From: Styela clava
Lineage: Eukaryota > Chordata > Ascidiacea > Stolidobranchia > Styelidae
NCBI RefSeq assembly: GCF_964204865.1
Contig: NC_135259.1
Span: forward strand, 4,216,001 to 4,280,000
Direction of reading: 5' to 3'
Length of the DNA stretch: 64,000 nucleotides
Shown: positions 13,333-53,198 of the stretch, in pieces
Position numbering within the stretch: the first letter of the stretch is position 1
Layout: each line of letters opens with the position of its first letter
Notes under the pieces: generated by a model
The model's database searches: none
Seen by the model: the letters and a program-made list of their open reading frames with translations, nothing else
What the model was told of the DNA's origin: nothing
Program-made: the position numbers and the translations under genes

Positions 13333-15599
13333 TTATCCTTGAGCACACAAACATTGTGGCACCTGAAAAAATTAATGATATATATACATATTTTATAATG
13401 TATTTATCTAACATTTATTATCATTTTGCATTCAATTTTTTTATTATCTACAATCTATTTCCCCCTATTTTATTGTTTATAAGTTTTAATTAGAGATGAA
13501 TAAGTTACTTACAAGTTAAAAAGCTACAGTTATATTATTAGTATTAATTTCCCCAGTGAAAATAGAGGAAAGTTGAACAAATTCAATTAAATGTACATGT
13601 TATTAGTGGGATGGTAAACAAAAATAAGGATACAAATAAGTTGACATTTACTTTGTATTGATTCTTGTTGTATACTTGAACCACAATGCTATCTTTGCAT
13701 GTGCATTTATCTCCACATATCTGAGAACCTGATTTACTACATAAAAATAAAACAAAGGTGAAAATTTATGTAAATTCATCAGTAAGGTTCATTTTGCGAT
13801 TATTGTACACACTCAATTTTTAAAACTAGTTAATCTGAGACTACAAGTCCAATCTACCTATGGAATTGTCGCAATTAAAATTTTGATTTGAATTAATTAG
13901 ATTTGTTCGACATACTCCTCATTCAAAGAACTTCAAATAACTATATTTTTTTTTAGAAATAATTGAAATATTCTAGAATCATGGCACCATCTACTCAAAT
14001 CAAATGTCCACAGAACTGAAACGTTTTGTTTTCAGCACATTCTCAATTTACTATTTTTAATAAAATTTACGTTCAAGTCTAATGGATTCAACCATCTTTA
14101 GGTACCAATTATTCGAATTCGATTAGTTTATAGCTAATTAGGTTTTTCAAAGCCGAGAACAACATGAATTTAACAAATTGATCTAGTGGGGTATTTCTTC
14201 CCAATAAGCAATAAAATAACTCAATGAATTAATCCGATATTGAGGTGCTAGTATTGAAAAATACTTTTTACTCGCATTCCGCATAAAATTGACAAATTTT
14301 TCATGAAAATTACGAGAGTTAAACTTCGCTTAATTATGCTTACTAGCAACAAGAAGCTTTAATCTTTTCTCCCTTGCCATTCGAATCCTTTATATTCACG
14401 TAACAAGTCTCCTTTTTGCATTCTTTGCTACTCTCTTTACACGGAGTGTAAGACAATCTAAAAAAAAATTTGAAAGAATAATTGTAAAAATTCTAAATAT
14501 TTAACCATTTTTTAGAAATATGCAATGGAAATTAGTGATGATATGGATGAAAAATATTTTTCACTAAATTGAAATAAATTAACAAACAAGCAAACCCAAA
14601 AATAGTTTTGACAGTAAATACACGAGAATACACAAACAATTTGCGATTACAACTTGTGCATGTTTGTATTTGCTTCTCTAGCAATTAACTGAAATTTTTA
14701 ATAAAATAATTTTTCAAAATCATTGTATATATGGAATATACCAAGGTAAATGTTCCGTCTCTTCATTATATGTATTTATATGTGACCGAATAATCAGTTT
14801 TTTCGCGAGTTGGAGCTTACAAACTAATTGGCATGTTCAAAACCATCAATAATCGTATGCACTTCAATTATTCCTCTCAAATGATATGCAGCGCGTTCGC
14901 TGACGAACTACGTTTTCATTACGATTACAACAGCCGTAATACTGGATGATTCCATTGTAAAGTGGATTAAGGCGATCGTGTCTTTATGACATATTGTAGA
15001 GTGCACGACGAATCCTAATCTGTTTAATTGAAGTGTGATGAATCGTAGTTTACAAGTTATTTCTTCCTTAGAATAATCAAGTCGAAAAGAGCCGCATGAA
15101 ACCGGCACAACCGGCCGAGCCGCTGGTAGGCCACCCACGGGAATAGATGATTAGCGAGGCAACGGTTACATAAAGAAATAAAAAAAAAGGGTCGATAATC
15201 GGGGAACAGAAAAATCAATGAAAAACAGTTCTTGTTAATGAACAATAAACCGTATTTATTTCATCCGAAAAAGCGATAAAATATAAACATTACATAGGAA
15301 ATGGTTAAAACAGTAACAATTCTAAAATGCCATGAGTATTTCTGCTACATAGATCAATATTGAATTTGTTGTTCAATATTTCTAAATTTGCCAGATGTAC
15401 AAATAAATTTACAACATAGGAAAGTGATTAAATAAAGATATAGTTACGGGAAAACAATTACGCAAAACATGGGAAAAGTGTGAATGATGCAAGAGCTCAA
15501 AGATACTTACGTCGGCTTACATTTGCACTCTTCAATGAATTGACAATACACCGAGCTAGCAAAACCTAAAATGAGTAAAGTCACAAAAAGCCGAATCAT
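13333..15599 (-). CDS. Twelve-cysteine secreted peptide, copy 1
   Basis: Exons: 15599-15511, 14457-14344, 13736-13652 and 13362-13333. Phases are 2, 2 and 0; all junctions carry GT/AG with pyrimidine-rich acceptors. The product has 105 residues. Residues 1-19 are a signal peptide (MIRLFVTLLILGFASSVYC, probable cut after it). The mature part has cysteines spaced C-x-C-x8-C-x6-C-x4-C-x17-C-C-x7-C-x3-C-x-C-x18-C-x-C, ending four codons after the last pair-forming CxC begins (CLCAQG). It is rich in Lys, and the exon 2 loop reads KDSNGKGEK. Copy 1 has three extra residues (FIE) before the first CxC. I do not recognise the fold; CxC pairs plus a CC doublet recall secreted disulfide-rich modules such as VWC-like domains, but the spacing does not fit. 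It is the leftmost of five tandem copies and keeps the TATA-containing promoter. Confidence 0.83.
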
Positions 15600-15730
15600 T
15601 GTATTCGTTTTCTTTCTGTAATAAATTTTACGTATATATACTTTAAAATATTGAAAACTACTGCAATATAATCTAGATTCATCTTGCTTTGATAAACAGA
15701 AAGCGGAAACTTAATTTATAAATATTAAAT
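15600..15730 (-). promoter_or_regulatory. Promoter and leader acceptor of peptide copy 1
   Basis: On the - strand a TATTTATA block (about 15724-15717) precedes by about 100 nt the 3' splice-like site TTTATTACAG (AG at 15617-15616), which sits exactly 16 nt before the ATG. The same 16-nt spacing recurs in all five copies. No donor allowing a normal intron between TATA and acceptor is evident, so the site could receive a spliced leader (the TATA-to-acceptor stretch being an outron) or end an intron starting further upstream. Confidence 0.45.
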
Positions 15731-16021
15731 TTGAATAATCGGAATTGAGTAGTCAGTCTCTCGAAAGTTCAAATAAATCGAATTAAGCCTATTACAATAT
15801 ATACAGCAAAAATAAATCGTGATGTCGAACCGAAAATATTATCAATTCTATTCCAAAATGGAGTCGAAGTTCTGGATTAATCAGAACACTGTTTAATTAG
15901 CAATTGCATTTTAATTTTGTACTATATTTCTGTATGTTTTCTATATCAGATATCAACAAGATTCCAAGTTTTATGTGATTGGGGTAGAACAGGAATTTTA
16001 AACTTAGTTCAAACTTAGTAA

Positions 16022-17532
16022 AAATAGCTCAGTTTACTGTGTCTGACACTGCTGAGTTTCAAGTATATCAGTGCGAAAGTTATATCACCTCGCAACACTC
16101 TAATCTGAATCTGTTTGACGTTACAATCCTTCTGCAAACTATTGTGAATTCTAACCTATATATGAATTATCTTGGCACATTCATATTTTTTTGTAAAGCT
16201 AACATAAATTTGTATTACGTATATATTTTGAACCTGTGCTGTGTTGTTCAGACACGCGTTTGCGAAACTGGAAAAAAAAAGGTTTATCTCAGTATATCCG
16301 GACAAAATTAGCAAGCAAAATTGTATCTTTTATCGCATCTGCAAAATGTAATGTACATAAATAGTGGTTCTTATATGCGCACGATTTGTTTATAATTTCG
16401 TCAAATGTTTGTCAAATAAGACATTGTACTATCGCTTTAATTTGCGTCATATTGGTTATTTTTTAAGATGTTCCGATTCTTTTTTACGTCAAGAATATTT
16501 CTCAGACACATCAGTTTGCCATGAAACAATATTAAACATTGCTGTAGTGATTTTTCAAAATATGAAAAAAAAAACTTCAGGAGTCAGTGTTTTGAGTTCG
16601 ATTTCCCTATATACGTATAACACAAATGGCATATTTAACCTGCTGGCGACCTATGGATACAAAGTAGAAATTCATATCCAGTTTTTGTTACAATTCTTTA
16701 CAATTTCAATTTTTGGGTATTCTACAATTTTTCAAACATTACACAATCGTAGTTTTACACTTCAGAATGGAATTAAAAATCGAAGAGTATACTTTTTTGT
16801 CACGATCATAAATCCATCTTATTAGCAGGTCTTGTGCCCAACATTTGAAACTTTTTTCAGGACGAATGTTTCTTGTTGGCAAATTATTAGAAGCATTAAG
16901 TGAGAAAGTACTTCACCTCAACAATGATCATATATTCTAAGTTAACAAAAACTAAGTAAATTACAAGCAAAGCTTTCTTTCATAAAAAGATAACAAAAGA
17001 TCTGCTAGAACCAGCGAGCTCACAAAAAATCCTTCCTCCGAGATCTAATCATATATAATAAATAAACTATTATGAAGGTCCAAAAATATTGACATGATCA
17101 TGATTAAATAAATTCAGAAGCATATATTGTCATATATATTCGATTCATTCCAGAAGCATACTAGATGTTTCATGTATTTTTGACTATGTGTTTTGCGTGT
17201 TGATGCTTTTCATTCAAGCATGTATATATATATTTGTTTTAAAAAAACTCGGTGCTTTGGTATACGTCCACTTCAATTTATGTTTTGAAAATGTTCTGTG
17301 AGGGCGTCTTTATCGTAACTTATTATAACTTATTCGCGATTTGATGTTTCAAATTCTTGATTTTTCAATTTTATTAGACCAGATAACCTGCTATTAGGCG
17401 TTCTGAACAAACAAAGGAAAGGTGATGGAGAAAATATTTGAAGATTGAAAAGATTGCACGAAGGAACCACTCCTGTTGTGTTTGATGGAATAAACAGATG
17501 TAACACGCCTTCAAGCGTTTATCGAAAATAGT
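16022..17532 (+). repeat. Left arm of long imperfect palindrome 1
   Basis: The arm starts AATAGCTCAGTTTACTGTG and matches, in reverse, 18305-19878. Shared phrases include CACCTCGCAACACT, CGTTACAATCCTTCTGC, TATCCGGACAAAATTAGCAAG, GATCATGATTAAA and GCCTTCAAGCG. Open frames at 16039-16311 and 16364-16825 are inside this arm, recur with disruptions in the other arms, and are not credible genes. The arms have diverged by many substitutions and small indels. Confidence 0.75.
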
Positions 17533-18304
17533 TCATTATGTATAAGAATTAAATATTAAAAAACTTTAGTGTAATTTTGTTACTGGCTGAGCTACATTTA
17601 TCAGGATGATATTGACCTCAATGCTTGAATCAAAATTTTCTCCATTTTAATTTCATTACACCGGAAATAAATCGAAATGAAAGATAGGCAAGGGCAAAAT
17701 AGAGTTGTCTTTCGACACGAGTAAGCGAGTTACTGAAGAAGAACTTTAACTAATATCATTCCAACGCACGAGTATTTTGTTGTACATCCAAATGAATTCA
17801 ACTAATATATATATGAAGTTGTGCTTTTTCATATGCAGGATAAAGTATATGATGATTGAAACAAAGTAATAGTTCGTTGAATTACCTAAATGGCAAAAAC
17901 AAATTTGAAACAATATGAATTTTTTGAAGATACCATTTTCTTTTTACATCTTTATGCTTGTAGTTAGAATGAATATGAGTAGAAATTGAGGTAAAAACAA
18001 ACTATATATAACTTTCCGAGATTGAATGAGGTAATCGCTCAATCCAAAATCAAATTCAATACCAATATTATACCGAATTGCTATACAAATGGGTAAAGAA
18101 AATATCTCTTGTGGAATGGAAAATACTCATTTTTTGTAAAGTTGTTGCGTTTACTTAAATCGTAGTCATATCAAACAAAAATGAAAAAAGTTTGATGGTG
18201 ATGTTGTTGAACAGATTGATTGACAAGACGTGGCATACTATCGATAATATATGTAGCTGCCAGGATATGGAACTTTTGAACTTATACAATTATCAAAAGT
18301 GTTT

Positions 18305-19878
18305 AGAATAGAATATAGATGAACGCTTGAAGGCGTGTCATATCTGTTTATTCCATCAAACACGATAAGAGTGGTTCCTCCGTGCAATCTTTTCAATCTT
18401 CAAATATTTTCGCAGACCTTCACTCTGGTTGATGAGAACGCCTAATAGCGGGTTTTCTGGTCTAATAAAAGTTGATAAATCAACAATTTGAAACATGTAA
18501 TTGGATTTATGTTATAATAAGTTACAATGGAGACGCCCTCACAGAACGGTTTCAAGACATAAATTGGAGTGGACGTATAACAAAGGGTCAAGTTTTTTAA
18601 AAACAAATATATACATGTTTGAACAACCAATTTCATTTTAGCGAATAGTTTAATCGAAAACACATGAAACAACTATTGTATATGTTGTTGAAATAAATTG
18701 AAAAGATATGACAATATATGCTTGTAAATTTAATTATTCATGATCATGTCAATATATCAGGTCCTCTATGAGAGTTTATTTATTATATGTGATCAGATCA
18801 CGAAGGGAGGAAACTAGCTCGTTCTGGCAAAATTTAAATTTCCCTCCAATTTTTTGTATAAAAAAGTTTTGCTTGTAATTTACTTACGTTTTTGTTAACT
18901 TAGATTATGTGATCATTATTGCAGTAAAATAATTTCTTACTTCACACTTATAATTATCTACTAACGAAAAACATTCGTCCTGATGAGAGTTTCAAATGTT
19001 GGACACAATGCATAAGACCTGTTAATAAGATTGATTTATCATTGTGACGAAAGTGGATACTCTTCGATTTTCAATTCCATTCTGAAGTGTGAAACTCCGA
19101 TTGTGCACGTTTTGAAAAATTGTAAAATACTTCAAAAGTTCAATAAATAATATTTTTTCCATATGTAGCTTGAGTGCATGTTCAGGGTAACAAAAACTTA
19201 ATATAGACTCGTACATCGTATCTATAGGTCAATTGGTTTCTTCAACGCCAGCAGGTCATGCCATTCGTGTTAAACGTATATGAAAATCAAATTCAAAACA
19301 CTGATTCATGAGGTTTTTTGATCGTCAGATTTGAAAAAATCACTAGAGCAAAGATTAATATTGTTTTATAAAAGACTGATGTGTCTGAAAAATATTCTCG
19401 ACGTAGAAAAGAATCGGAACATCTTAAATAATGACCACCATGAAGTGACGCAAATCAACGCGATAGTACAAGATCTTATTTGACAAATATTGGACTAAAT
19501 TATAAACATATCGTGCGTATATAAGAATCACTATTATGTTCAATAAATTTCGCAGATGCGGTAAAAGATACAATTTTGCTTGCTAATTTTGTCCGGATAT
19601 ACTGAGATAAACCTGTTTTTTTTTCAGTTTGCAAACGCGTATCTGAACAATACACTACAGGTTTGAAATATATACGTAATACAAATGTATGTTTCCTTAC
19701 AAATATAAAAATGCATGTGCCGACATAATTTATATTTGGGTAAGATTTCACAATAGGAGAAGGCTTGTAACGTCGAACATACGTAGATTAATTATAGTGT
19801 TGCGAGGTGAAATAACTTTCGCACTGATATATTTTAAACTTAACAGTGTCATAAACAGTAAACTAAGCTATTTTTGGA
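18305..19878 (-). repeat. Right arm of long imperfect palindrome 1
   Basis: Inverted partner of 16022-17532, ending CAGTAAACTAAGCTATTTTT. With a spacer of about 0.8 kb the whole structure is about 3.85 kb. Related arms lie next to copies 2-5 (about 25446-28075, 37600-37870, 39695-40700, 45060-45870, 53571-53940). The fold-back form with shared outer ends suggests a transposable element with long terminal inverted repeats that was amplified together with the peptide genes. Confidence 0.7.
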
Positions 19879-25195: not shown

Positions 25196-25445
25196 TGTAT
25201 TCGTTTTGTATCTGTAATAAATTTCACGTATATACTTGAAAAAATAAATTGTGGTTTTAATCTGAAAATATATCATCAATTCTATTTTATAACAGAGTCG
25301 AAGTTCTGGATTGATCGGAACAATGTTAATTTGCAATTGTATTTTAATCTTGTATTATATTTCTGTATGTTTTCTATATCAGATATTAACAAGATTCCTA
25401 GTTTTACGTGATTCAGGTAAAACAAGAAATTTAAACTTAATTAAA

Positions 25446-28075
25446 AAATAGCTTAGTTTACTGTGTCTGACACTGTTGAGTTTTAAGTATATCAGTGCGA
25501 AAGTTATATCACCTCGCAACACTCTAATCTGAACCTGTCTGACGTTACAATCCTTCTGCAAACTATTGTGAATTCTAACCCATATAGGAATTATCTCGGC
25601 ACATTCATTTTATTTTTTGTAAAGCTAGCATAAGTTTGTATTACGTATATATTTGTAATCTGTGCTGTATTGTTCAGAAACGCGTTTGCAAGACTGAAAA
25701 AAAACAGGTTTATCTCAGTATATCCGGACAAAATTAGCAAGCAAAATTTTATCTTTTATCGCATCTGCAAAATGTAATGAACATAAATAGTGGTTCTTAT
25801 ATACGCACGATATGTTTATAATTTAGTCAAATATTTGTCGAATAAGATGTTGTACTATCGCGCTGATTTGCGTCATGATGGTCATTATTTAAGATGTTCC
25901 GATTCTTTTCTACGTCGAGAATATTTTCCAGACACATCAGTCCTCTATGAAACAATATTGAACGTTGCTGTAGTAACTTTTCAAAATCTGACAATTAAAA
26001 AAACTCAGGAATCAGTATTTTGAATTCGATTTCCCTATACGTATAACACGAATGGCATATTTTACCTGGCGTTGAAGGAACCAATTGACCTATTGATGCG
26101 ATGTACGAGTCCACACCCAGTTTTTCTTACTCTGGGCATGTACACAAGCTACCTAGAAACAAAATAACTAATAATTGAAATGTTGGAGTATTTCACAACT
26201 TTTCAAATCTTACACAATCGGAGTTTCACACTTCAAAATGGAATTAAAAATCGAAGATTATACATTTTTGTCACGATCATAAATCAATCTTATTAGCAGG
26301 TCTTGTGCCCAACATTTTGAAACTTTCTTCAGGACGAATGAACCTTGTTGATAAATTATTGGAAGCGTTAGGTGAGAAAGTACTTTATCTCAACAATGAT
26401 CCTATATTCTAAGTTAACAAAAACTAAGTAAATTACAAGCAAAGCTTTTTTTCTATAAAAAGATAAAAAGGAGTGTTTAAAAATTTTGCCAGAACCAGCG
26501 AGCTCGAAAAAAAGCCTTGCTCCGAGATCTAATCATATATAATAAATAAACTATTATGGAGGACCAAAAATATTGACATGATCATGAATAATTAAATTCA
26601 GAAGCATATATTGTCATATATATTCGATTCATTTCAGAAGCATACTAGTTGTTTCATGTGTTTTTGACTGTTCACTGAAAATAAAATTGGTTCGCGTGTT
26701 GATGCTTTTCGTCCAAGCATGTATATATTTGAATTAAAAAAAAACTCGGTGTTTTGGTATACGTCCACTCCAATTTATGTTTTGAAACTGTTCTGTGAGG
26801 GTGTCTTCATCGTAACTTATTATAACATATTTTCGATTTGATGTTTCAAATTCTTGATTTTTCAATTTTATTAGACCAGTTAACCTGCTATTAGGCGTTC
26901 TCATCAACCAGAGTGAAGGTCTGTGATAAAGAAAATATTTGTAGATTAAAAAGATTGCACGGAGGAACCGCTCTTGTCGTGTTTGATGGAATAAACAGAT
27001 ATGACACGCCTTCAAGCGTTCATCTATTCTAAACACTTTTGATAGTTACCCTGGGGATGCCCTCACAGAACGGTTTCAGAACACAAATTGGAGTGGACGT
27101 ATAACAAAGGGTCAAGTTTTTTTTTTAAATATATGCTTGCAAACTTAATTATTCATGATCATGTCAATATATTAGGTCCTCCATGAGAATTTATTCATTA
27201 TATGTGATCAGATCACGGAAGAAGGAAACTAGCTCGTTCTGGCAAAATTTACACTCCACTCCATTTTTTATAAAAAAAAGTTTTGCTTGTAATTCACTTA
27301 GTTTTGTTAACTTCGAATATATGATCATATTTGCAGTAAAATAATTTCTTACTTAACGCTTCTAATTATCTACCCATAAAAACATTCATCCTGATGAGAG
27401 TTTCAAATGTTGGACACAATGCATAAGACCTGTTAATAAGATTGATTTATCATTGTGACAAAAGTGGATACTCTTCGATTTTCAATTTCATTCTTAAGTG
27501 TGAAACTCCCATTGTGCACGTTTTAAAAAATTGTAAAATACTCCAACATTTCAATTAATAATATTTTTTCTCTATGTAGCTTGAGTGCATGTTCAGGGTA
27601 ACAAAAACTTGGTATGGACTCGTACATGGTATCTATAGGTCGATCGGTTTCTTCAACGCCAGCAAGTCATTCCTTTCGTGTTAAACGTATATAAAAATCG
27701 AATTCAAAACACTGATTCATGAGGTTTTTTTTTGATTGTCAGATTTGGCAAAATCACTAGAGCAATGATTAATATTGTTTCATAGAAGACTGATAAATAT
27801 TCTCGACGTAGAAAAGAATCGGAACATCTTGAATAATGACCACCATGACGTGACGCAAATCAACGCGATAGTACAATATCTTATTTCACAAATAGTTGAC
27901 TAAATTATAAACATATCGTGCGTATATGAAAATCATTATTTACGTTCAATACATTTCGCAGATGCGATGAAAGATACAATTTTGCTTGGTAATTTTGTCG
28001 GGATATACTGAGATAAACCTGTTTTTCCAGTTTTGCAAACGCGTATCTGAACGATACACTACAAGTTTAAAATAT
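25446..28075. repeat. Long imperfect palindrome 2
   Basis: The left arm starts at about 25446 (ATAGCTTAGTTTACTGTGTC) and runs to about 27050. The inverted arm starts at about 27056 (GATGCCCTCACAGAACGG) and is recognisable to about 28075, where it is truncated. A stretch at 28254-28455 repeats the outer end of the left arm in direct orientation. The sequence aligns with palindrome 1. Open frames 25790-26023 (+) and 26734-27036 (-) are arm sequence. Confidence 0.7.
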
Positions 28076-29870: not shown

Positions 29871-29872
29871 TC

Positions 29873-32049: not shown

Positions 32050-35000
32050 TCAGTAATCTTTAGCACACACACATTGTGGCACCTGAAAAATGTATGATAT
32101 ATATACATATTTTATGATGTATTAATCTAACATTTATTATCATTTTGCATTCAATTTTTTTTATTATCTACAATCTATTGCCCCCTATTTCATTGTGCAT
32201 ACTTTTTAATCATATAGAGAAGTTACTTACAAGTTAAAAAGATACAGTTATATTATTAGTATTCATTTTCCCCAGTGAAAATGAACAGAAGTTGAACAAA
32301 TTCAATTAAATGTACATGTTATTAGTGGGAAGATAAACAAAAATAAGGACACAAAAAAGTTGACATTTACATTATATGGATACCCCTGGTATACTTGAAC
32401 CACAATGCTATCTATGCATTTGCATTTATCTTCACATATCTGAGGACTGGATGCTGTGATACTTAAAAATAAAACAAAGGTGAAAATTTATGTAAATACA
32501 TCAGTAAGGTTCATTTTGCGATTATTGAACACACTCAATTTTTAAAACTACTTTATCTGAGACTACAAGTCCAATCTCTGGAGATAATTGATACCTATGG
32601 AATTGTCGCGAATAAAATTTTGATTTGAATTAATCAACTCCTCATATCAAATCAAATTAATATACTCCTCATTCGAGGAACTTCAAATACCTATATATTT
32701 TTCCTAGAAATAATCGAAATATTCTAGGATCATGGCACCATCTACTCAAATCAAATGTCCCCAGAACTGAGACGTTTCGTTTTCAGCATAGCCTTTTTCT
32801 ACGTTCAAGTCCAATTGATTCAACCATCTTTAGGTACCAATTATTTGAATTCGAATAGTTTATAGCTAATTATGTTTTTCAAAGCCGAGAAAAACATGAA
32901 TTTAACAAAATGATCTAGCGGAGTATTTCTTCCCCATAATCATTGAAATAACTCAATGAATTAATCCGTTGTTGAAGTGCGAGTATTGAAAAATACTTTT
33001 TACTCGCATTCCACATAAAATTGACAATTTTTTCATGGAAATTACGAGATGTAAACTTCGCATAATTATGCTTACTAGCAACAAGAAGCTTGTAAACCTA
33101 TTTCATTCCCATTCGGATCCCTCCTAATCACGTGACAAGTCTGCTGTCTGCATATTACTCTACTCTCTTTACACGGAGAGTAAGACCACCTGAAAAAAAT
33201 TTTGACACTATGATTGTAAAAATTCGAAATATTTCACCAATTTTTATGAATTAATTTTTTAATTTTTTTACTTCTCTCAAATGGTATAAAGCGCGAACTA
33301 CGTTTTCGTTACGATTACAACAGTTTATTAATTAGTTTCTTCACTAAAATGAAATAAATCAACAAACAAAACCCAAAAATAGTTTTGACAGCAAATATAT
33401 GAGAATACACAAACAATTTGCGATTACAACTTGTGCATATTTGTAATTGCTTCTCTAGCAATTAACTGAAATTTTTAATAAAATAATTTTCTAAAATCAT
33501 TTTATGTATATATAGTCCGGCAGATAAGGGGCCTTTTTGGGCCCAACCTTGGTTTCAGACATAAAGTTTTTTTTATTTATGAGTATTCATCTTGGGGTCA
33601 TTGCCCATCATTTCTACATGGGTGTGGAGTTTGCAGCTTTGAACAATTATTTCTACGGCTTGATATTTGTATTAGTTAGTGTTTTTCGTCAAATCTGTGC
33701 ACCCTCATGGCGCACAACCTGAACCCTAACCTGTTAACACTACTGTGTTCAGGTTGTGCGCCATCTTGGTGCACAAACTATGGAAGCACTAAAATTTACT
33801 AGGGAATAAAGTCAATAACTTTTAGGTACTTTTTGAACCCAGCTTTGGGTCGCGACCCATATATATTCAAATACTGTTGAAACATACGGGTAAAATAAAG
33901 AGTACTACTTCAAAATACCCGCTTTAGTTGCAATTAACAATACAAGACTGCTAATGAAGTCGGCAGTGGTTCAAGTTGATATACACCCGGTGTAGAACAG
34001 TCAATTATTTGTTAGCAAGGATTGTTATGTATCGGGAAGATTACGACGATGCAGTGAAAGATAATGCTATCACGAAAACAAGAATGAGAAAATTGCTACA
34101 TTTCATAGTATATATATTTCCCTGGGAAAGAATGTAGTTCATTCTTATGTTCCATGCTTTTCAAACTGCCAAAGACTCTCAACACTTTAGCTTCTCTTCT
34201 ATAAAAATACATTGTTATTATATATTCGCATTTCCATCTATTTGTTCGTGCTCCCAGATAACCGATCAGTGGCCTATCATAAACTAAAAAAGGCGACCGT
34301 GCTTCTCTTGCCTGTTGTCATGCTGTCCCTCGAGTTCAATTCCAACAAAAAATTCACGAAAACGGGTTTTAGATTTTATGATTTCATTAATATTCTCAAC
34401 AATGAATGATATAAGGGTGGTAAAATGCCAAGGTACTCCAACAACATGATCATGTTTTGCAACTTACAACCAATATTTTGTATGTAACTTTGTTTGACAG
34501 AGCCTCAAGAGGTCTAACTACAAATATCAAAAATGTGAGGTTAAAAAGCATTACATGAAGAATGGTAAAATAAAGATCAATTCACCAATATCTACTTAGA
34601 ACTTAGTGATGTGCATCTGTTAATGTTTTTATGTGTTTTAGCGATTCCTAGATATATTCGCGCTATCGCATCTGAACAGCGTGGAAAAGTTTATACCTAT
34701 CTATGCACTTGAAAAACTATGTCAGATGAGCGTCATATTATCGAATATCAGTAAAGGAATAGTGCAATGGGAAAAGACATATATGGCGTAACTTTCAGTA
34801 ATATGCAATCAAATAATCTTACTGTATAGAATATATATTTAAAAAAAACATTTCGTCACGCCAACCGCAGTCCGAAACCTTTTGTCTCTGGCTGAGCTTA
34901 GATACCAATTGGCACTCATGTAAACTGGTAAGAGGCACGCGATGGAGCAGATAATATGAGTATTCACCCCCCAGCTGTCATTTGAGTGGGTACTGCTGTT

Positions 35001-37351
35001 TTTATTAAAGATGATACTGATCTTTTTGTATTAAAGGTTTACTGGCATCACCGATTTGAGGATGTCAAGTGATGGATATAAAGGAACCAGTTGAAAACCA
35101 ACACGCAATATTTACAAAGCTTACTTCCAACATGCGGTTTGAATGTACGAAAAAGCTGAAACTAGTATTCTTTAGAACAGCATACAAATTCTATGGAATG
35201 AAATCATACACAAAATCTCGTCAAAAACCCATAGCTCAATAAACAAATGGAATTTGATGCATGTGCGCATTACAACGTACAATCGAAGCACGCAGGGAAA
35301 TGTGTGTGATGTACTAGTGATCTAAATGTTTGACTCAACTATGTGGGTATAACAGGTGCACATCTCGGTTTCGCATACGCATACCTTCTATCTTCACAAG
35401 AATATATTAATTTGGACAAAGTCAATACTGCACCTGAAAGGTTCCGGTTCTTCCAAAAGAAAACACGTTACACATCCTTAGATATCAGTGGATGGTTTTA
35501 CCTTGTTTGGAGTGAAAGACGAGGTCGGATATTCCAATTCATTTCAACTAATAAAATATTTCCCAAGTCCCTAAGCTTTAAGCAGGAAAACGAAATGCCC
35601 GCGGCAACACAAATGTAGTTTGAAGAACGCAAAAAAGTGGCTAGATGCTGTCGATGAATCTTGGCCCATATTAGTGAAATAAACTACAATTTATTCACAA
35701 CCTGAACATTGTATGTGTACGAGGCTAGGGTCCAGGATTTGCGTCATTTTGGTACTAATACTTGAAATCCACTTAAAAAAATTGCTCAACATCATATACT
35801 CCACACCCACCTGGGTATCAATATTTATGTCATCGACATTATATCTAAACAATAAAAAAAACTTTATGTCTCAAAACAATGTTAAAACCCAATGGGATCG
35901 GCCTGGTCATAAAGGGGTACCCTGTGTCATAATTTGGGATTATGGCTAAATTAAATGTATTTTGGGGGGTCAATAGTATTTCATAGTGGTCTGCATGTGA
36001 ACAAAACCAATTTCAAAACTCAAAAGGTTTGAGTTTAAATTATCCATGCTTGATCCGAGTGTTCTTAATTACGGTGACGTCATCATATTTTTTTATGTAT
36101 AATTTTTATTTTGTAACAAGGTCAATTTTATTTGTATGAGTATTTCAAAGCTTAAAAATAAACAAAGAATCTGTTGTTAGTTGAAAACGAAGTATTTTGA
36201 ACGCGCGAGCAACGTTCTCCGACTCATAATAAACAAACAAAGATACCAGACAGCACGCGATCAAATGCTCTTGGATAAAACGAATATCACTTCACTTACA
36301 AATCCCACTCTTGTTTTATTTTAAAGGTGACGTGAAGCTCTTCTAAAAGAGAACTCTTTCTCTTGCATATCAATCACGTGTCGACCACAGCGTTAAAAGT
36401 GAGAAACTTTTTCTCGAAATTTTTTGAAATTTCTCTCTTCTTACCGGCGTACGGCCGTACACATTTGCGCTACGTAATTTGGGCGCATTTTAGTGGAAAG
36501 CGAAGAAAATAAGCTTTTTAAGGACACATTAATGATGTTTTTGGCATTTTGGTTGGTGAAATATTAAAAAAATTATAGAGGGGTGTCAAAATGACCCAGG
36601 AACACCGGTGGTTATTAGGGCCCGATTCTGCTGGACTAATATAGAATATACAAAGATGTTCCGTCTCTCCATTATATATATTTATATGCGACCGAATATT
36701 CAGTTTTTTTGCGAGTTGGCGCTTACAAACTAATTTGCATGTTTAAAACCATCATTATCCGTATGCACTTCAATTACTGCTCTAAAATGGTTTACAGTGC
36801 TATGTTTTCGTTACGATTACAACAGCCGTAATACTGGATGATTCCATTGTAAAGTGGATTGAGGCGATCGTGTCATTATGACATATTGTAGAATGCACGA
36901 CGAATCCTAATCTGTTTAATCGAATAGATGATTAGCAATAGTTATATAAATAAAAATGAGTCCGATAATCAGGGAACGGGAAAATCAATGAAAAACAGTT
37001 CTTGAACAATACACCGTATTTGTTTAATGCGCAAAAGAGCAAAATACAAACATTATATAGAAAATGGTGAACAGTATCCATCCTGAAATGCCACGGGTAT
37101 TTCTGCTACATAGATCAATAATGAATTTGTTATTTTATATTTCTCAATTTTCCTAATGTACAAAGAAATTTACAATATAGGAAAATGATTCAATAAAGAC
37201 ATAGTCACGGAAAAACAAATATGCAAAACATGAGGAAAGAGTAAATGATGCAAAAGCTGAAATATACTTACCTCGGCTGACATTGACACAAATTACAATA
37301 CACCATGCTAGCAAACCCTAAAATGAGTAAAGCCACGAAATGGCGAATCAT
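32050..37351 (-). CDS. Twelve-cysteine secreted peptide, copy 3
   Basis: Exons: 37351-37272, 33189-33076, 32461-32371 and 32082-32050. The product has 105 residues. The signal peptide is MIRHFVALLILGFASMVYC; the mature part begins NLCQCQP. Cysteine spacing equals copy 2. The exon 2 loop is RRDPNGNE; the last exon reads VPQCVCAKDY. His4 within the hydrophobic signal core is unusual but should still permit export. Intron 1 is 4.1 kb because a 3.1 kb transposon (33515-36636) sits in it; exons and splice sites are intact. Like copy 2 it lacks the TATA-bearing upstream segment (junction near 37400). It is probably functional at protein level; expression is uncertain. Confidence 0.8.
33515..36636. 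mobile_element. TA-flanked 3.1 kb DNA transposon, non-autonomous
   Basis: The insertion interrupts sequence that is continuous in copies 1 and 2 (resumes at AATATAGAATATAC). Its ends are GTCCGGCAGATAAGGGGCC and, inverted, GTCCAGCAGAATCGGGCCC, flanked by TA at 33513-33514 and 36637-36638. Longer subterminal parts also pair: about 33560-33670 and 35790-35905 inverted (GACATAAAGTTTTTTT, GGTGTGGAGT). Open frames inside (33537-33722, 34212-34409, 35343-35618, 35713-35949) show no transposase motif. The TA target duplication suggests a Tc1/mariner- or similar TA-targeting superfamily, which is an inference. Confidence 0.7.
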
Positions 37352-39695: not shown

Positions 39696-39696
39696 C

Positions 39697-40700
39697 AATC
39701 TCATGAATCAGTATTTTGAGTTCGATTTTCCTATACTTATAACACAAATGGCATATTTAACATGGCGACCTATACAAATCCATATCCAGTTTTTGTTACG
39801 ACGTAGACATAAGTTACGTAAAAAAAAATAATTGATATGTTGGAGTATTTTACAATTTTTCAAAATTACACAATCGTAGTTTTACACTTCAGAATGGAAT
39901 TAAAAATCGAAGATTATACATTTTCGTCACGATCATAAATCTATCTTATTAGCAGGTCTTGTGCCCAACATTTGAATCTTTTTACAGGACAAATGTTTCT
40001 TGTTGGAAAATTATTAGAAGCGTTAAGTGAGAAAGTACTTTACCTCAACAATGATCATATATTCTAAGTTACCATAAACTAAGTAATTACAAGCAAAGCT
40101 TTTTTTTATAAAAAGATAAAAAGAAGTGTTTAAAAATTTTGCCAGAACCAGCGAGCTCACAAAAAATTCTTTCTCTGAGATCTAATCATATATATTAAAT
40201 AAACTATTACGGAGGACCAAAAATATTGACATGATCATGAATAATTAAATTCAGAAGCATATGAATGAATTCAGAAACTTGGTATGAACTCGTACATCGT
40301 ATCGATAGGTCGATTGGTTTCTTCAACGCCAGGTCATGCCATTCGTGTTGAACGTATTGGAAAATCGAACTCAAAACTCTGATTCATGAGGTATTTTTTT
40401 TCGATTGTCAGATTTGGAAAAATACCTAAAGCAATGTTTAATATTGTTTCATGGAAAACTGATGTATCTGAAAAATATTCTTGACGTAGAAACAATCGGA
40501 ACATCTTAAATAATGACCACCATGACGCAAATCAACGCGATAATACAATATCTCATTTGAGAAAAATATGACTAAATCATAAGCATATCGTGCGTATACA
40601 GGAATCACTATTTACGATCAATACATTTCGCAGATGCGGTAAAAGATACAATTTTGCTTGGTAATTTTGTCCGGGCATACTGAGATAAACATGTTTTGCA
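39697..40700. repeat. Rearranged palindrome arms of unit 3
   Basis: 39697-40265 matches the arm in direct orientation (compare 26000-26640). From about 40275 to 40700 it matches in reverse (compare 27600-28060). The centre of the palindrome has been deleted, leaving the arms abutting at about 40266-40275. Confidence 0.6.
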
Positions 40701-40766
40701 AACGCGTTTCTGAACAATGCAATACAGGTTTAAATATATACGTATCAATGTGTTCAAATTTTGCAG

Positions 40767-42292: not shown

Positions 42293-44646
42293 TCAATATA
42301 CTTCCAAACACGTACATTGTGGCACCTGTAAAAACGATAATGTAAATAATGATATATATATATATACATAATTTATTATGTATTAATCTATTATCATTTT
42401 GTATTTAAATTTTTATTATCTATGAGCTCTTACCCTTATTTCATTGTATATACTTTTCAATTACAGAGAATTTACAAAAACGTTAAAGAAGCTATATGGA
42501 TATTACTAAAGTAATAATATTTCCAGTGAAATTAGGCGAAAGTTGAACAAATTCAATCAAATATACATAAGTGTTATTAGTGCGATGGTAGACAAAAATA
42601 ACGATAAAAATAAGTTGACATTTACTTCATAGTAATTGCCCTCGTATTCTTGATACACGATTCTATCCATGCATTTGCAGAATTCTCCACAACTCTCAGG
42701 TTCTGAATTGGGACTTAAAAATAAAAAAAATATGAAAATTTGTCGCAGAATAATGTGCCAACAACTAAAATGTTTCGTTTTCAGCACATTCTCAATTTAC
42801 TTTTTTTTTAATAAAATTCATTTAAAAATGTAAAAAAAGATAATAACGTTCTAGTGCAGGAGTTCTCGAAATTTCAGTGTTATGGAGCCCGTGAAAAGGG
42901 TGGCTATTATTTGCGGAGCCCCACAATAAGTAAACATATGTTATCTTTACGATATTTAGCCATTTATCCACCGTAAGGGCTAAAAAAACAATGACATTTT
43001 CACCCTCGAAATACAAGTAATCACGCTTCTTATATATATATACCTAGGCTGACCATCTACAAAATTAAAATCGTTACTGGAAATACAACAGATTATTCGA
43101 CCATTCCAACAGAAACAGACCGAATACACTGACTATGATTTGTGATTGATGATCGATCAGTTGCAAGATGCTTCCAGCTAAAAACGTTACTAAAATTCAG
43201 CATTGCTAGTTTATTTATTAACTACTGAACATTTTCTAATATAGGGTTGAATAAAGCTAGAAATAAATCTAAATTTCGCAAATAAATTATACTAACTCTG
43301 GACATTTGTCACTTGACAAACATAGAAAGTAGTGTAGAAATGTGGAAACGAGGCGAAAATTGAAACATAGCGTTATCTATTGGAACTTACAGATAATGTC
43401 ATATTTGAATTAATAACGTGTTGCCACATTTCGACGCTTCCGTTGTCAAATTTTATTAATGCAGTTATTTCATCTTTGAACAGATTCAAAATTAGCCAAG
43501 TCAGTAATTTAATAAGTACACGAATTGCTCGCGGAGCCATAGGTTTCTCTCACGAATCCCTGCGGCTCCGTATGAAGCTCTTTGAGAATCTATAAATTGA
43601 GCCATCCCTAAGAACTAAGTATTTGAAATTGATTGACATATAGATAACTATTTTTAAATGAAACGATCTATAGGTTTATTTCATCCCAATAGTATTCAAA
43701 ATACCTCAATTAATTAATCCTTCACTCAAGTACGTTGAAGAGCTTTAACAAAAATAGTTTTTACTCGCATTCCGCACGGAAATGACAATTTCTTCATGAA
43801 AATTGCAAGAATTAGAACTTTGCATAAACCTCGCATAATTATACTCACAGACAACAAGTAGCTGGTAAGCTTATTTCATTCCCTTCCGGATCGTTTTTAT
43901 TCACAAAACAAAGAGACCGTTTGCATTCTTTCTGCGATTCACACTGAAAGTTCCGAAAACTGAAAAAAAAAAAATTAGGATTGTGAAAATTCGAGATATT
44001 TTACTATTTGTAGAATTATGCGGTGAAAATTAATGATGATATGGATGAAAAATATATTTTTCTAAATTGAACTAAATTAACAACTAGAAACCCAAGAATA
44101 TTTTTGTACAGTAAATATATTACACAATACAAACAATTTTTGATTGCAATTTTCGCATATTATTTCAGCAATTATTTGAAATTTTTAATACGATAGTTGC
44201 CCAAAAGCATTGTATAGATTAGAATATACCAAGATAAATGTGCGGTCTATCCATTTTTTGTATTTATATGTGACCGAATAATCAATGATAAAACAAAATT
44301 GATGTCTTCTCACATGTTACTCCAAAAATGAATGCTTCCTAAGACCCTTATATAATTTACCATTGTAACATTATTTATGCTTACTTTATTTGTACGTGTT
44401 TGGCGCTAATTTACATGTTCAAAACCACCATTTTCATTTGAAATACTCAATCACGTGTCAATATAATGTATCGGCAGCAAATGTTAGCCCGGTCTATCAG
44501 CTTTACCAGATTGAATGCAAAGCATGAGGAAAGCGTAAATGATGTAAAAGCTAAAAAAATACTTACGTCGGCCGACATTTGCACAATTGACAGTACACCA
44601 AGCTAGCAAACCCTAAAATGAGTAAAGTCACAAAAAGACGAACCAT
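42293..44646 (-). CDS. Twelve-cysteine secreted peptide, copy 4
   Basis: Exons: 44646-44567, 43959-43849, 42713-42626 and 42325-42293. The product has 103 residues. The signal peptide is MVRLFVTLLILGFASLVYC; the mature part begins QLCKCRP. Spacing is C-x-C-x8-C-x5-C-x4-C-x17-CC-x8-C-x3-C-x-C-x18-C-x-C. Intron 2's donor is GTGAGT rather than GTAAGN. The exon 3 loop is acidic (PNSEPES, YQEYEGNYYE) whereas copies 1-3 are neutral or basic there, so copy 4 and copy 5 form a second subtype. The last exon reads VPQCTCLEVY. TATA region and 16-nt leader acceptor are both present. Intron 2 carries a hAT-like insertion starting at about 42856. Confidence 0.83.
42856..43600. mobile_element. hAT-like insertion in intron 2 of copy 4
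   Basis: The left end is CAGGAGTTCTCGAAATTTC, followed by GGAGCCCGTGAAAAGGG. The right end inverted reads GATTCTCAAAGAGCTTC followed by GGAGCCGCAGGGATTCG. Such 'CAGnnGTTCTCAAA' ends with a GGAGCC subterminal block are typical of hAT-derived elements. A diverged relative starts at about 50365 in copy 5 (CAGGTGTTCTCAAACTTTTG), so insertion predates the split of these two copies. No transposase is recognisable inside. Confidence 0.5.
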
Positions 44647-45100: not shown

Positions 45101-45536
45101 CAGTGGTGAGCTGTAGCCGCAGCGCACCGGAACGGCGTTCCGGTTGATGGACATTTTACTGCATTTGAGTTCTTTTCGTTGAAATAAAATTATGCTACAT
45201 AAAGTCTAGTTTCTCTGGTAAATTCAGTTTTGTTTATGTTTTGTTACATCATATTAACTAAGTCTTTTTACGTCACATCACGCAAATAATAGTACAGTAG
45301 TAACGTGTATTAGGTGTTTCCCCGACCTTTAACCACATGAATATCCATTCTATACTTTTTAAATAATAAGATTTGTATTGAATTGCTATGACTACTCTTG
45401 TAATTTTACACAAACATATTTCATTTCTTCCCAGTTCATTGCAGTTCTGTAAACGTCCGCGTCGTGTTGTGAATATATTACATTTTTTGCGAATTAGGTG
45501 CGTTCCTGTTGTTACAATTTTTCCAGCTCATCACTG
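45101..45536. mobile_element. hAT-type miniature element with 8-bp target duplication
   Basis: The ends are CAGTGGTGAGCTG (left) and, inverted, CAGTGATGAGCTG (right). The flanks are GTCTCAAG (45093-45100) and GTTTCAAG (45537-45544), an 8-bp duplication with one mismatch. The uninterrupted site is present in the other units as GAGTTTCAAGTATATCAG. Terminal CAG and 8-bp duplications are hAT hallmarks. At 436 bp it has no transposase. The palindrome GGAACGGCGTTCC lies near its left end. Confidence 0.8.
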
Positions 45537-47191: not shown

Positions 47192-47879
47192 CCGAAATAT
47201 TTTGGATGGATCACAAACTAGTTTTTGTGTTATATTTTAGCAAGAAAATTTTTGTAAATCTATCAGTTTGAATAGAAAAGTTGTTGAAACAAAACAACAC
47301 GAGAAAAATATTTATTTTCATTTCAACTGAATGTAAACTAGTAAGATATATTTGTAGACAAGATATTGGAAGATAAATGTGGTCCTAGAATAAATAGTTT
47401 GTAAAAACTGTTCCTTTTTTAAAGTGAATAAAGCTTTTATAAGTTAGTGCTTGATTGAATATTTAACAAAGCATTGGACTAATATTCGTTTTTTATCAGC
47501 CATATTTGGTACTGTTTTGTGTACGTTTTTATATGAATATAAAGTATAAAGAGTGCTACTATGAGATTCTAATATAGTTTTTGGGTAATCGGCACAGTCA
47601 CGAAAAATCAATAAGGAAATAATTTCTGTCAATTCTGAGTTTGGTTTGATTATACTTTTCAATTTTTAGTGCACCGGGCATTGATGACGTTTAAAAGATA
47701 TCCAGTTTTTCAAACAATACCCTGACATTGAATATGCTATTCCAAAGTCCTGATCGGTCTCAAATCGAATTTTGAAACTTACATGACTGTACGATTTGAA
47801 AATAAGCTCGGTTAGGGAAGCCGTAAATAGATAATCAAAACTTTAATATTCCAACGAGAATTTCGGTCAGAGACCGGAG

Positions 47880-48650
47880 ACTTATCGATCGAAAGTTAGG
47901 GGATCCCCTAGAACAGAAACTGCGATTTCGATTCGAAAAATTCTGCAAACCCGAACTGAATTGTTTTGAATAGTTTTCAGCCAATATCAAAAATGTAGAA
48001 AACAATAGCCAACTCCCCATGTCGTCGATGAAATACAACTACTCGAGGAAATACTTTTATGAAGAATTCTGCAAATCCGAACTGAATTGTTTCGATTAGT
48101 TTCCAGCCAATAGCCTATTTACCAATCCTATATTTGTGTCAAATACAACGGCGCTAACCCGGGTTGCGACGGCTATTCAAACACAGCCTAGCGATATTTT
48201 GGTGAGGAATTCTGCAACCCCGAACCTGATAGAGGGATATGGACATTGCTTAAACTTTAAAGAGTAATTATAAGTAACGAGATACGATTTCGCGGCGTGT
48301 AACCTTCGCTCTGACTCAATAGCGTGAAAAATTTCTCGAAAGAAACTTGCGCATCGCGACGACGTCAAAGTTGCAAAAGAGATAGGGACAATGCTTAAGG
48401 ATTAATCACGAGATACGATCTCTCGCTTTGTAAAAATCCAGATGTTTTCATCACTAATTGATTAATAACTCGCTAATTATACGACATAATTCATCCAAAA
48501 TCAATAGGCTACTGGTCCGAGATATGATGAATGCACATGCTGAATTTGGAGCAGATTCAACCACGCCTTCGTGAGATATCGCGTGCATCTAACAGACAGA
48601 CATACAGACAAATACCTATCAACATACTTACCGATTAAAATCGATAAGTA
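47880..48650. repeat. Inserted repeat with terminal GACA-rich segment
   Basis: It begins ATCGATCGAAAGTTAGGGGA and contains two related blocks GAATTCTGCAAAnCCGAACTGAATTG (47940 and 48065). It ends with ACAGACAGACATACAGACAAA and CGATAAGTAA. Its start and middle match 20990-21140. The sequence on either side (AAGCATTTTATCTGCCAGG at 48651, flank match to 12170 and 41392) shows that it is an insertion in the 3' flank of copy 5. No coding frame is recognisable. Confidence 0.5.
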
Positions 48651-51261
48651 ATAAGCATTTTATCTGCCAGGCTGCAACTATTAGTTTTTGAAGCAATTCA
48701 ACGAAGTGACATCAGTAACTCCACAACGATCACATGTTTTTTTTGTATTAATTGGATATCATATTCCAACATTATTTTCTCTTCATTTCATTTATCACGC
48801 TTATCCATGAACCTTGACACAATATTTTATAGCTCAACTTTTATTTTTATAAATTTCATTCATTTTATGGCGCCATTTTTATTTGAAATATAGTTCCACG
48901 ATCCGGCATATATAGTTTACATGATGCGAATGAATTTCCTCCTACGCTACTGGCTGATAGCGACTCACCTACGCCATGGAACAGTTTTCTTTTTTTCTTT
49001 CTTGCAAAAAATACATTTCGAATATTATCCATATTAGTTTGTTTGTGCAAAGCAAACCCAATACTACACAGGAAAAAGAAATCAGACGCGCATCTCATTC
49101 ATTTTTTTGTTTGACCTGCCAATCACAACCCGTTCTAAGTCACCGACTTCGCAATCTGATTTTTGTTTTATCCACCTTGGTGACTAATTATTTTGTTGTT
49201 TTAGCTACTTTCGTTAACAAACTTGACAAACCCATATTTACCTTTCTTTTCTGCCCTAATTACTATTCAATTCCCTATTTTTTTTATTTTGTAAAGTAAA
49301 ATTTACAGCTTTAAACCTGAATAAATATTTCGATTCGAATATGCAGCGTGTCCTAAAATGCCCGATCCTTCTTATCATTGATTGTATGTGATGTGCAACC
49401 GCGTCCATCATACAAAGCTTTTTAAGTCTTCTAAAACTAACCCCCAACTTCACTCCAACGCGGGAAGTATATCAAAGACACTTTTATATTTTAATTGTAT
49501 TCATTGACTTTCAATTCAAACGAATACATTTGTCCGTTTAAATGTCCTTGGATCAATATTCTTTAGAACACCCACATTGTGGCACCTGAAAAAAAAATAA
49601 TATTATACTGTATATTTTATATACCAATTTTGTTATGTATTAATCTATTATCATTTTGTATTTAAATTTGTATTACATCTTGCCATAATTCAATTGTTTA
49701 TACTTTTCAATTAGAGAGAATTTACATACAAGTTGAAGCAGGAGTATTACTATAGTATTCATTTTCTGCGATAAAATTAGGCGAAAGTTGAACAAATTCA
49801 ATCAAATATACATATGTTCTTAGTGCGATGATAAACAAAAATAATGATAAAAATAAGTTAACATTTACTTCATAGTGATTGCCCTCGTATTCGTGATACA
49901 CGATCCTATTTCTGCATTTGCAGGATTCTCCACATCTCTCAGGTTCTGAACTGGGACTTAAAAATAAAACAAAGGAGAAAATTTGTGGAAATACATGATT
50001 GAGGTTTATTTTGCGACTATTGTACACACTCAATTTTTAGGAGTAACTTATCTACGGCTCGAAGCAATTCAAAAACAAATCTCTGGAAATAATTGATAGA
50101 ACTGTCGAAATTAAACGTTTGATTTGAACTAATTAGATTTGTTCGACATATTTGTTCTCGTTCAAGAAACTTCGAAATCCTATATTTTTGTCGTATAGAA
50201 ATAATCGAGATATTCCAGGATCATGGCACCATCTACTCAAATCCTATCTTTGATTGTCTCAGAATAATGTGCTTACAACTTAAACGTTTCGTTTTCAGCA
50301 CCTTCTCAATGTAATAAAATTTATTTAAAAACGTAAAAAGGTAATAACGTTCTAGTGCAGGTGTTCTCAAACTTTTGATAATATGCCCGGAAAAGGGTCG
50401 ACTATTGTTAATCGAGCCGCACAATATGTAAACATGAGTCATTTGTAGTTGACTTGCTTTCATTTACCTCTACAATATTAAGCCATTTATCCACCGTAAG
50501 GGATAATCATAATGCCGTTTTCACCCTCGAAATACAAGTAATCACGTTTCTTATAAACATGCCTACGCTGTTAAACACAATCTACAAAACACAAACTTAC
50601 TGGTTACTGGAAATGCAACAGATTATACGACGTTGCAACAGGAAAAGAGCAAATACTGACTAACATGTGTGAATGATAATCGAGCAGTTGCCAGATGCTT
50701 CCAGTCAAAAATAGCCAAAAATCTTATTTAAATTCATCATTGCTAGTTTATCAATTTTTTGTATTTATAGAATAAAAAATTAAAGAGAGTTAAACTACTA
50801 AACCTTTTCTAATAAGATTCAATAAAATCTAGAAATAAATCTAAATTTCACATATAAATTATATTAACGCTGTACATTTTATACTTGACAAACATATTAA
50901 TAAAGTAGTGTCGAAATGTAGAAACAAGGCGGTAATTAAAATTTGGCATTATTCATTGGAACTTATAATCTCTTATTTGAATTAACGCAACGTTGCCACA
51001 TTTTGACGCTATCGTTGTCAAATTTTATTATTGCCATCAATTGGCATATAGATAATTATTTTTTCACCAGGACAATGCCGGGAACAACATAAATTTAGCA
51101 AAACGATTTATTGGTTTTTGCCTCCCAATAGTCCTTAAAATAACTCAATAAATCATGCCGTTATTCAAGTGAGTAGACGAGCATTAAAAAATACTTTTTA
51201 CTTGCATTCCGCACAAAATTTACAATTTTTTGATGAGAATTGCAAGAATCAGAACTTTGGC

Positions 51262-51455
51262 GCTCAAGAAGGGTTAGGGTTACGCCATACCTTTATTTCA
51301 ATTTTCCGTATTTTAGTTCTATTACGAGTTCGGTAAATAGCCAAGTGACTCCCGTAGTATTTGTACCTAAAATTATAACCTAACCCTAACCTGGTACACA
51401 TACGACGTTCCGGTGTCCGCCATCTTGGTGCACAAACTTATGGAGTACCGAACTT
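51262..51455. mobile_element. Miniature inverted-repeat transposon in intron 2 of copy 5
   Basis: Related in reverse orientation to 24496-24702: GTTCGGTAAATAGCCAAGTG, CTCCCGTAGTA, CCTAACCTGGTACACATACGAC and CGCCATCTTGGTGCACAAACTT. The left end is less well defined (GGGTTAGGGTTACGCC near 51270). It is non-coding. Confidence 0.55.
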
Positions 51456-51935
51456 TGTATGAACTTCGCATAATTATACTTACAGGCAACAAGTAGCTGG
51501 TACCCTTATTTCCCTCCCTGTTGGATCCTTTCTGATCACATCACAAAGATACCGCATGCATTCCTTCTCCCCTTCACACGGAGAGTACCAATCAATAATA
51601 CTGAAAAAATAATTAAAATTAGGATTGTGTCAATTGGGGATATTTTATTATTTTTTAGAGTTATGCGGTGAAAATTAATGATGATATGGATGAAAAATAT
51701 ATTTCACTAAATTGAACTAAATTAACAACTAGAAACCCAAGAATATTTTTGTACAGTAAATATACAACAAAATACAAACAAATTTCGATTACAATTCTTG
51801 CATATTTGTAATTGCTTCTCGAGCAAATAAATGAATTTTTTTTTAAATAAGTTTCGCAAAAAGTATTGTATATAGAACATAACAAGATAAATGTTTGGTT
51901 TCTCATTTTGTGTATTTATATGTGACCGAATAATC

Positions 51936-52664
51936 AAGTGGGCCACGAAGCAGTTCAAGGGGGGCCACGACACAAGGCTAATAATTTATTATGAAGCGAC
52001 TAAGTTTGCATACTTTTCATTTGAAAGAAAAATTCCCGTTCACCTCAGTTTTATTATCTCAGTCACAAGGTGTATTTACTTTCTTGTGTGTGCGAATTGT
52101 TTGATCATAATGGAATTTTGAATATATTAATCAGAATAGTTTGTTAGTAGGCCATCTAACCTGTAGACGGGCAGTTTCGCTAGAGTGCGAGGTCACCGTC
52201 GATATTATATTATTACTGCAGAAGACTTTATGTAAGTTCCCAATGCCCAAAATACGAAAATGGAACGAAAGTTACGTTGGCTTTGGTTTTGTTGATGACA
52301 TCGCTGCCGATGTATGCTAACACGTTCGCTTTGAAATCAAGCGAGGAAGACTTTTCGAGTTTCTGTATATCCCTTTGCGATTCTTACCTACTACGTAGTA
52401 AGAAAGCTTCTTCATTGCTAGTTCAATTTGCCACAACCTATCTGTGCGAATCTATTTTTTCTGATCTTGTTACCAACAAAGCAAAATCTAGGAACCGTCC
52501 CGATGTTGACAGTGACCATTGCCTGGCTATATCAAAGACGGTGCCTAATATAAGGAATCTAGTTAGACAGTCCCAAGCGCAAGATTCACATTGATTGTTT
52601 ACTAAAAAGCTTTGACTTTTTTGCCCGTGGTTTGTAAAGTAAAGTAGAAGATTGAGAACCACTG
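51936..52664 (+). mobile_element. hAT transposon remnant with transposase C-terminus
   Basis: This insertion lies in intron 1 of copy 5. Frame 52277-52594 encodes about 105 residues that match the C-terminal dimerisation region of hAT transposases of the Charlie/ZBED5-like type: F-x-TTYLCES-x-FS-x-L, K-x-RNR-x-D-V-x-x-D-x-x-LA-x-S-x-x-x-PNI. There is no N-terminal catalytic domain, so the enzyme is a fragment. The right terminus is TTGAGAACCACTG (52652-52664). The left part (51936-51970) has GGGCCACGA and GGGGGGCCACGAC, typical of subterminal hAT sequence. Confidence 0.75.
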
Positions 52665-53198
52665 TCATAGGGATTGGTGAACAGCAACCATCCTAAAATG
52701 CAACGAGTATTTTTGCTATATAGATCAATATTACGTTAGTTGTTTTATATTCCTTAGTTTGCTTGTTGTACAAGGAAGTTTTCAATATAGGAAAGCGATT
52801 AATAAAGATATAGTTACGTAAAAACAATTATGCAAAACACGAGGAAAGTGTGAATAATGCAAAAGCTAAAAAATACTTACGTCGGCCGACATTTGCACAA
52901 TTGACAGTACACCAAGCTAGCAAACCCTAAAATGAGTAAAGCCCCAAAAAGGCATTGTATTCGTTTTGTATCTGTAATAAATTTCACGTATTTACTTATA
53001 AAGATTGTCAACTTCTTTAGAAAACTATTACAATATCATCTTCATCATGTTTTGATAAGAAGAAAGCGGACGTCTAATTTATAAATATAAAGTTTGGACA
53101 ATCAGGATTGGGTAGTCAGTCGCTCGAAAGTTTTGAGGTCTATTTCAATATATACAGCAAAAGTAAATTGTGGCGTCAATATGAAAATATTATCAATT

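What the first reader, a model, noticed from the sequence alone, without database searches (positions are those of the whole stretch)
13333..52955. Tandem array of five genes for a twelve-cysteine secreted peptide of unrecognised family
Five minus-strand copies share four exons, phases 2-2-0, a signal peptide ending VYC, and the framework C-x-C-x(8-10)-C-x(5-6)-C-x4-C-x17-CC-x(7-9)-C-x3-C-x-C-x18-C-x-C. All exons are too small to appear as long open frames, so ordinary ORF-based annotation would miss them. The cysteine spacing matches no family I can name. This is the best candidate for an undescribed system in the window: a lineage-specific secreted peptide cluster.
Basis: partly seen in the sequence, partly recalled or inferred. 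Interest (0 to 1): 0.9.

Follow-up and report, generated by a model that had tools for sequence, protein, structure and literature searches.

The report
Fast-evolving sea-squirt secreted peptide cluster
A sea squirt (Styela clava) carries five neighbouring copies of a gene for a small secreted peptide with twelve cysteines; the peptide matched no described family in our searches and its mature part appears to change unusually fast, as defence or recognition molecules often do.

Summary
Five minus-strand copies (A-E) at 13333-52955 share four coding exons, phases 2-2-0, GT-AG borders and the stated 12-cysteine framework. Two corrections. Copy E cannot be read from its ATG here: its first coding exon is frameshifted and the upstream non-coding exon seen in A-D is deleted; an intact form is in the protein databases. 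And annotation did not wholly miss the cluster: the organism is the ascidian Styela clava, and uncharacterized NCBI proteins identical to C and D are listed; none was found for A or B. The searches gave no homologue outside S. clava and no Pfam, NCBIfam or credible PDB match. All 12 mature cysteines are invariant among A-D, while other mature positions diverge at dN/dS about 1 (site test p about 0.015) and, in 4 of 10 copy pairs, faster than sampled introns (2 pairs opposite). Net charge runs from +6 to -4. I read it as a tandem family of disulfide-locked secreted peptides under diversifying selection, most likely immune or defensive. Two low-confidence models lean towards the cystine-knot growth-factor fold, a hint only. 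An undescribed family of a familiar kind.

The parts
13333..15599 (-). Copy A coding region: exons 15599-15511, 14457-14344, 13736-13652, 13362-13333; 105-aa preprotein, mature net charge +6
   Evidence: no database protein of this sequence among the hits
16038..16063 (-). Copy A 5' non-coding exon (start approximate; donor after 16038; acceptor before 15615)
   Evidence: splice junction inferred from P0003
22708..25195 (-). Copy B coding region: exons 25195-25116, 23855-23742, 23122-23032, 22743-22708; 106 aa, net +1; 5' exon about 25487-25462
   Evidence: no database protein of this sequence among the hits
32050..37351 (-). Copy C coding region: exons 37351-37272, 33189-33076, 32461-32371, 32082-32050; 105 aa, net +2; identical to NCBI protein LOC120338072 (P0001); 5' exon about 37643-37618
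42293..44646 (-). Copy D coding region: exons 44646-44567, 43959-43849, 42713-42626, 42325-42293; 103 aa, net -4; identical to NCBI protein LOC120338519 (P0002); 5' exon ends 45075
49553..52955 (-). Copy E: exons 52955-52881 (frameshifted from the ATG), 51600-51484, 49956-49869, 49585-49553; 5' exon deleted; broken form in this assembly. An intact form is the database protein P0003 (LOC120338533)
45101..45536 (-). 436-bp insert with near-perfect inverted ends and near-perfect 8-bp flanking repeats (hAT-like, label recalled) in the 5' exon region of copy D; truncated homologue at 53570-53196 in copy E
16064..16086 (-). Conserved TATA-like segment of copy A (also B 25510-25488, C 37668-37646, D 45567-45545, E 53601-53579)
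   Evidence: promoter role is inference

Best explanation
A tandem gene family of Styela clava encodes small peptides (mature part 84-87 residues) with twelve cysteines, presumably six disulfides. Shown from sequence: five homologous copies, a conserved signal-peptide-like start in A-D, invariant cysteines, fast change of the other mature residues, and a copy (E) that is broken here but intact in a database entry. Inferred: the peptide is secreted from epithelium or blood cells, folds into a rigid cysteine scaffold made largely of two beta-hairpins, and uses its variable surface to bind targets that change over time, such as microbes, their proteases or other foreign molecules; different copies, with different charge, cover different targets. 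Most likely role: innate immune recognition or defence.
For: Anatomy. Coding constraint. Selection: pairwise mature dN/dS 0.55-1.60 against 0.18-0.81 in the signal peptide (A-D, 6 pairs); codon site model M2a over M1a 2dlnL 8.35, p about 0.015, 66% of sites with omega 2.1 and 34% with 0.12 (A-E). Mature exons differ more than sampled introns in A-B (24.5% vs 8.4%, p 1.2e-9), A-C (20.5 vs 12.8, p 0.005), B-C (17.2 vs 9.7, p 0.002) and A-D (35.0 vs 25.7, p 0.007). Intact and broken forms of copy E. Charge +6, +1, +2, -4, -1 for A-E. A candidate secreted cationic six-cysteine peptide gene lies about 5 kb from copy A, with a paralogue outside the window.
Against: No expression, localisation or activity data. 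Of 10 copy pairs the intron comparison is significant in the stated direction in 4, not significant in 4 (A-E, B-D, B-E, C-D) and opposite in 2 (C-E p 0.044, D-E p 6e-6); pairs with D or E include intron stretches that no longer align. Synonymous sites are also above introns in A-B (p 0.0006) and B-C (p 0.003), not in A-C (p 0.65), so intron homogenisation may explain part of the excess. The high divergence in A-B is not confined to exons: the window just upstream of exon 2 is 0.32 and windows below exon 4 reach 0.40; in D-E exons 2 and 3 are no more divergent than their surroundings. The site model was my own code on five sequences with one fixed tree. Reproductive proteins and protease inhibitors give the same signature. 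Acidic members (D, E) speak against a simple cationic membrane-lytic peptide.
Confidence: 0.42

Rival explanations
1. Reproductive proteins: the peptides act in gamete recognition or as seminal or egg-coat proteins, which also evolve fast and duplicate in tandem.
For: Same signature of fast change with a constant cysteine frame. That ascidians use fast-evolving gamete proteins is recalled knowledge; a review, PMC9265791, was seen only in a search listing with the start of its abstract.
Against: No expression evidence either way; nothing seen in the window points to gametes.
Confidence: 0.2
2. Cystine-knot cytokine-like ligands: the peptide is a miniature relative or look-alike of the NGF, Spaetzle, IL-17, PDGF and DAN fold class and acts as an extracellular signal or antagonist.
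Confidence: 0.2
3. Protease inhibitors with variable binding loops.
For: Small, disulfide-rich, secreted, fast-changing between fixed cysteines.
Against: No match to any Pfam family, inhibitors included, and no single hypervariable loop: sites in the fast class are spread over the whole mature peptide.
Confidence: 0.12
4. A decaying, non-functional repeat cluster.
For: Copy E is broken and D carries an insert in its 5' exon region; dN/dS near 1 overall.
Against: Open frames in A-D, 12 of 12 invariant cysteines, exon 2-4 lengths differing by threes, a third of codons at omega 0.12.
Confidence: 0.06

Closest known systems
Tandem families of fast-evolving secreted disulfide-rich peptides in animals (defensins and comparable effector families; recalled)
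   Same: Tandem copies, conserved signal peptide, fixed cysteine scaffold, fast-changing surface, an intact and a broken form of one copy
   Different: Twelve-cysteine framework with no Pfam match and no credible PDB sequence match; four coding exons; charge not uniformly cationic
Cystine-knot growth-factor superfamily (NGF, Spaetzle, IL-17, PDGF, DAN/gremlin)
   Same: Two predicted beta-hairpins and a C-terminal C-x-C; weak structural resemblance
   Different: No sequence match, twelve cysteines, much shorter fingers (recalled comparison), low-confidence models
Known ascidian antimicrobial peptides (styelins, clavanins; recalled)
   Same: Small secreted peptides of Styela
   Different: Those are linear, cysteine-poor and cationic (recalled); these have twelve cysteines and variable charge

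Membership tests
Cystine-knot growth-factor superfamily | Sequence profile match to a member family | tested here: not met
   Pfam, no family at E up to 10 for A-D and P0003, with the tool's caveat that its filters drop most matches above about 0.1; PDB profile search gave four chance-level APOBEC rows
Cystine-knot growth-factor superfamily | Two beta-hairpin fingers in the knot topology | tested here: inconclusive
Cystine-knot growth-factor superfamily | Knot disulfide connectivity | not testable with these tools
   needs a disulfide map; a C-terminal C-x-C is present
Cationic antimicrobial peptide | Net positive charge in all members | tested here: not met
   net +6, +1, +2, -4, -1 for A-E, E taken from P0003
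Cationic antimicrobial peptide | Killing of microbes | not testable with these tools
   bench assay needed
Fast-evolving tandem secreted disulfide-rich peptide family | Signal peptide more constrained than the mature part, cysteines fixed | tested here: met
   in one of six pairs (B-C) the signal-peptide ratio, 0.81, exceeds the mature one, 0.55
Fast-evolving tandem secreted disulfide-rich peptide family | Secretion and expression shown | not testable with these tools
   signal peptide judged by eye and by hydropathy only

The most novel reading that the evidence does not exclude
A styelid-specific family of miniature cystine-knot cytokine-like ligands under diversifying selection, that is, an immune or recognition signal evolved in one chordate lineage, with copy or allele differences between individuals.
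Probability: 0.13. Interest if true: 0.7.

Novelty: new variant of a known kind. Interest (0 to 1): 0.47.

Why it matters
[quoted passage not shown] A compact, fast-evolving array of orphan twelve-cysteine peptides, with a broken and an intact form of one copy, gives a small locus that is directly testable by expression, population genetics and structure. It also shows that part of such a cluster (copies A and B) was not to be found in a very large protein database.

Tried and rejected
No Rfam family at gathering threshold in the window and no tRNA. No phage record matches copy B. A concatenated three-copy query for longer or fused relatives found none at E up to 1 among 45 candidates. Viral-structure Foldseek search: best E 0.19. 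Internal duplication of the two halves of the peptide: observed score reached by 20 of 500 cysteine-preserving shuffles, not accepted. The extra N-terminus of P0003 is read as an annotation extension through the 5' exon and the insert, not as part of the peptide (inference). The weak own-genome match on contig C1 (E 0.9; L015) is taken as chance. Papers: none of the held library names the three LOC numbers; some searches were seen as listings with abstract beginnings, and no paper was opened. Later searches for expression papers did not complete.

Full report
Where it lies. The window is contig C13, bases 4216001-4280000, of a 376.6-Mb assembly in 379 contigs. The organism is Styela clava (Ascidiacea, Styelidae) by inference: database proteins named S. 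clava are identical to copies C and D, and the contig length listed for them, 22,500,630, equals that of C13.

The observation. Blastn with the exons of copy A finds five copies of each exon, all on the minus strand, plus four short chance-level matches. The gene models have GT-AG borders and phases 2-2-0. The mature parts have the stated cysteine framework. The exons look constrained as coding sequence: no stop in exons 2-4 of any copy, and lengths of exons 2-4 differ only by multiples of three, against 3 of 17 internal gaps in intron 3. Thirteen of the 14 own-genome matches of copy A lie on C13 at these exons and the other is a weak match on C1. That search did not list exon 3 of D and E nor any exon 4, so it would also miss more divergent copies. 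In 20 kb on either side of the window, copies A, B, C and P0003 find nothing below E 0.9.

Corrections. Copies A-D have an additional 5' non-coding exon whose donor and acceptor agree with the splice junction implied by P0003; this is inferred, not seen in RNA. In copy D this exon region is interrupted by a 436-bp insert with near-perfect inverted ends and near-perfect 8-bp flanking repeats. In copy E of this window the 5' exon is deleted together with one end of the same insert, and the reading frame from the ATG at 52955 is shifted and stops after 12 codons. P0003 (LOC120338533) has the same mature peptide as the exons of E with an intact start and an N-terminal extension like the one that insert plus 5' exon would encode in copy D, from which it differs in three residues. 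So an intact form of E exists elsewhere, presumably in another individual or assembly; P0003 is listed without a contig. NCBI lists copies C and D, but nothing matching A or B was among the hits of a search clustered at 90% identity, so annotation missed the cluster only in part. A fused or very different model of A or B is not excluded; a search for longer proteins found none.

Evolution. Among A-D the twelve mature cysteines are invariant, as are 16 of 70 other ungapped columns. Pairwise mature dN/dS is 1.01, 1.60, 1.24, 0.55, 0.79 and 0.97 for AB, AC, AD, BC, BD and CD; in the signal peptide 0.57, 0.34, 0.18, 0.81, 0.56 and 0.33. Mature exons differ more than sampled introns in A-B, A-C, B-C and A-D; four pairs show no significant difference, and C-E and D-E show the opposite. 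With intron 3 alone the exon difference is higher in 10 of 10 pairs, which are not independent and were not tested (D-E only 0.177 against 0.165). Along A-B, windows on exon 2 are at 0.20-0.25 and most windows of introns 2 and 3 at 0.02-0.15, but the window just upstream of exon 2 is 0.32 and windows below exon 4 reach 0.40, so the excess is not confined to exons. Synonymous sites are raised too in A-B and B-C but not in A-C, so homogenisation of introns between copies may contribute.

How it probably works. A rigid disulfide scaffold (inferred) presents a surface that differs between copies in charge (+6 to -4) and in about three quarters of its non-cysteine positions. The peptide is secreted (inferred from the signal peptide) and most likely recognises or neutralises changing foreign targets. 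A candidate cationic six-cysteine secreted peptide gene about 5 kb from copy A, with a paralogue outside the window, is compatible with a defence neighbourhood but proves nothing. The reproductive, inhibitor and cytokine-like readings remain open.

Limits. No RNA evidence was available; the own-genome search with P0003 did not complete and the five-copy profile search could not be made; paper searches after one search did not complete.

Noticed in passing
window 8357 to about 7079, minus strand: Three-exon gene candidate for a secreted cationic peptide (six cysteines; net +15 over 62 residues before an acidic C-terminal tail), antimicrobial-like in layout; no Pfam family above its cut-off and no PDB match. 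A paralogue of all three exons lies on the plus strand in L019 (2396-3541), and a first-exon-like remnant at window 3852-3751.
   Followed up: partly
window 929-2572, plus strand: Open frames that look like exons of a multi-pass membrane protein; no Pfam family above its cut-off for the 197-aa frame at 1979-2572.
   Followed up: no
window 16020-17523, 18318-19875, 25444-27047, 27128-28075, 39697-40744: Dispersed direct and inverted repeats (about 73-92% identical) between the array units; they may have helped duplication.
   Followed up: no
window 45101-45536 and 53196-53570: A hAT-like (label recalled) short inserted element in the 5' exon region of copies D and E; in P0003 a sequence like it is predicted as protein-coding.
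   Followed up: partly
window about 62902-63068, plus strand: Start of a probable type II membrane protein gene (read by eye).
   Followed up: no
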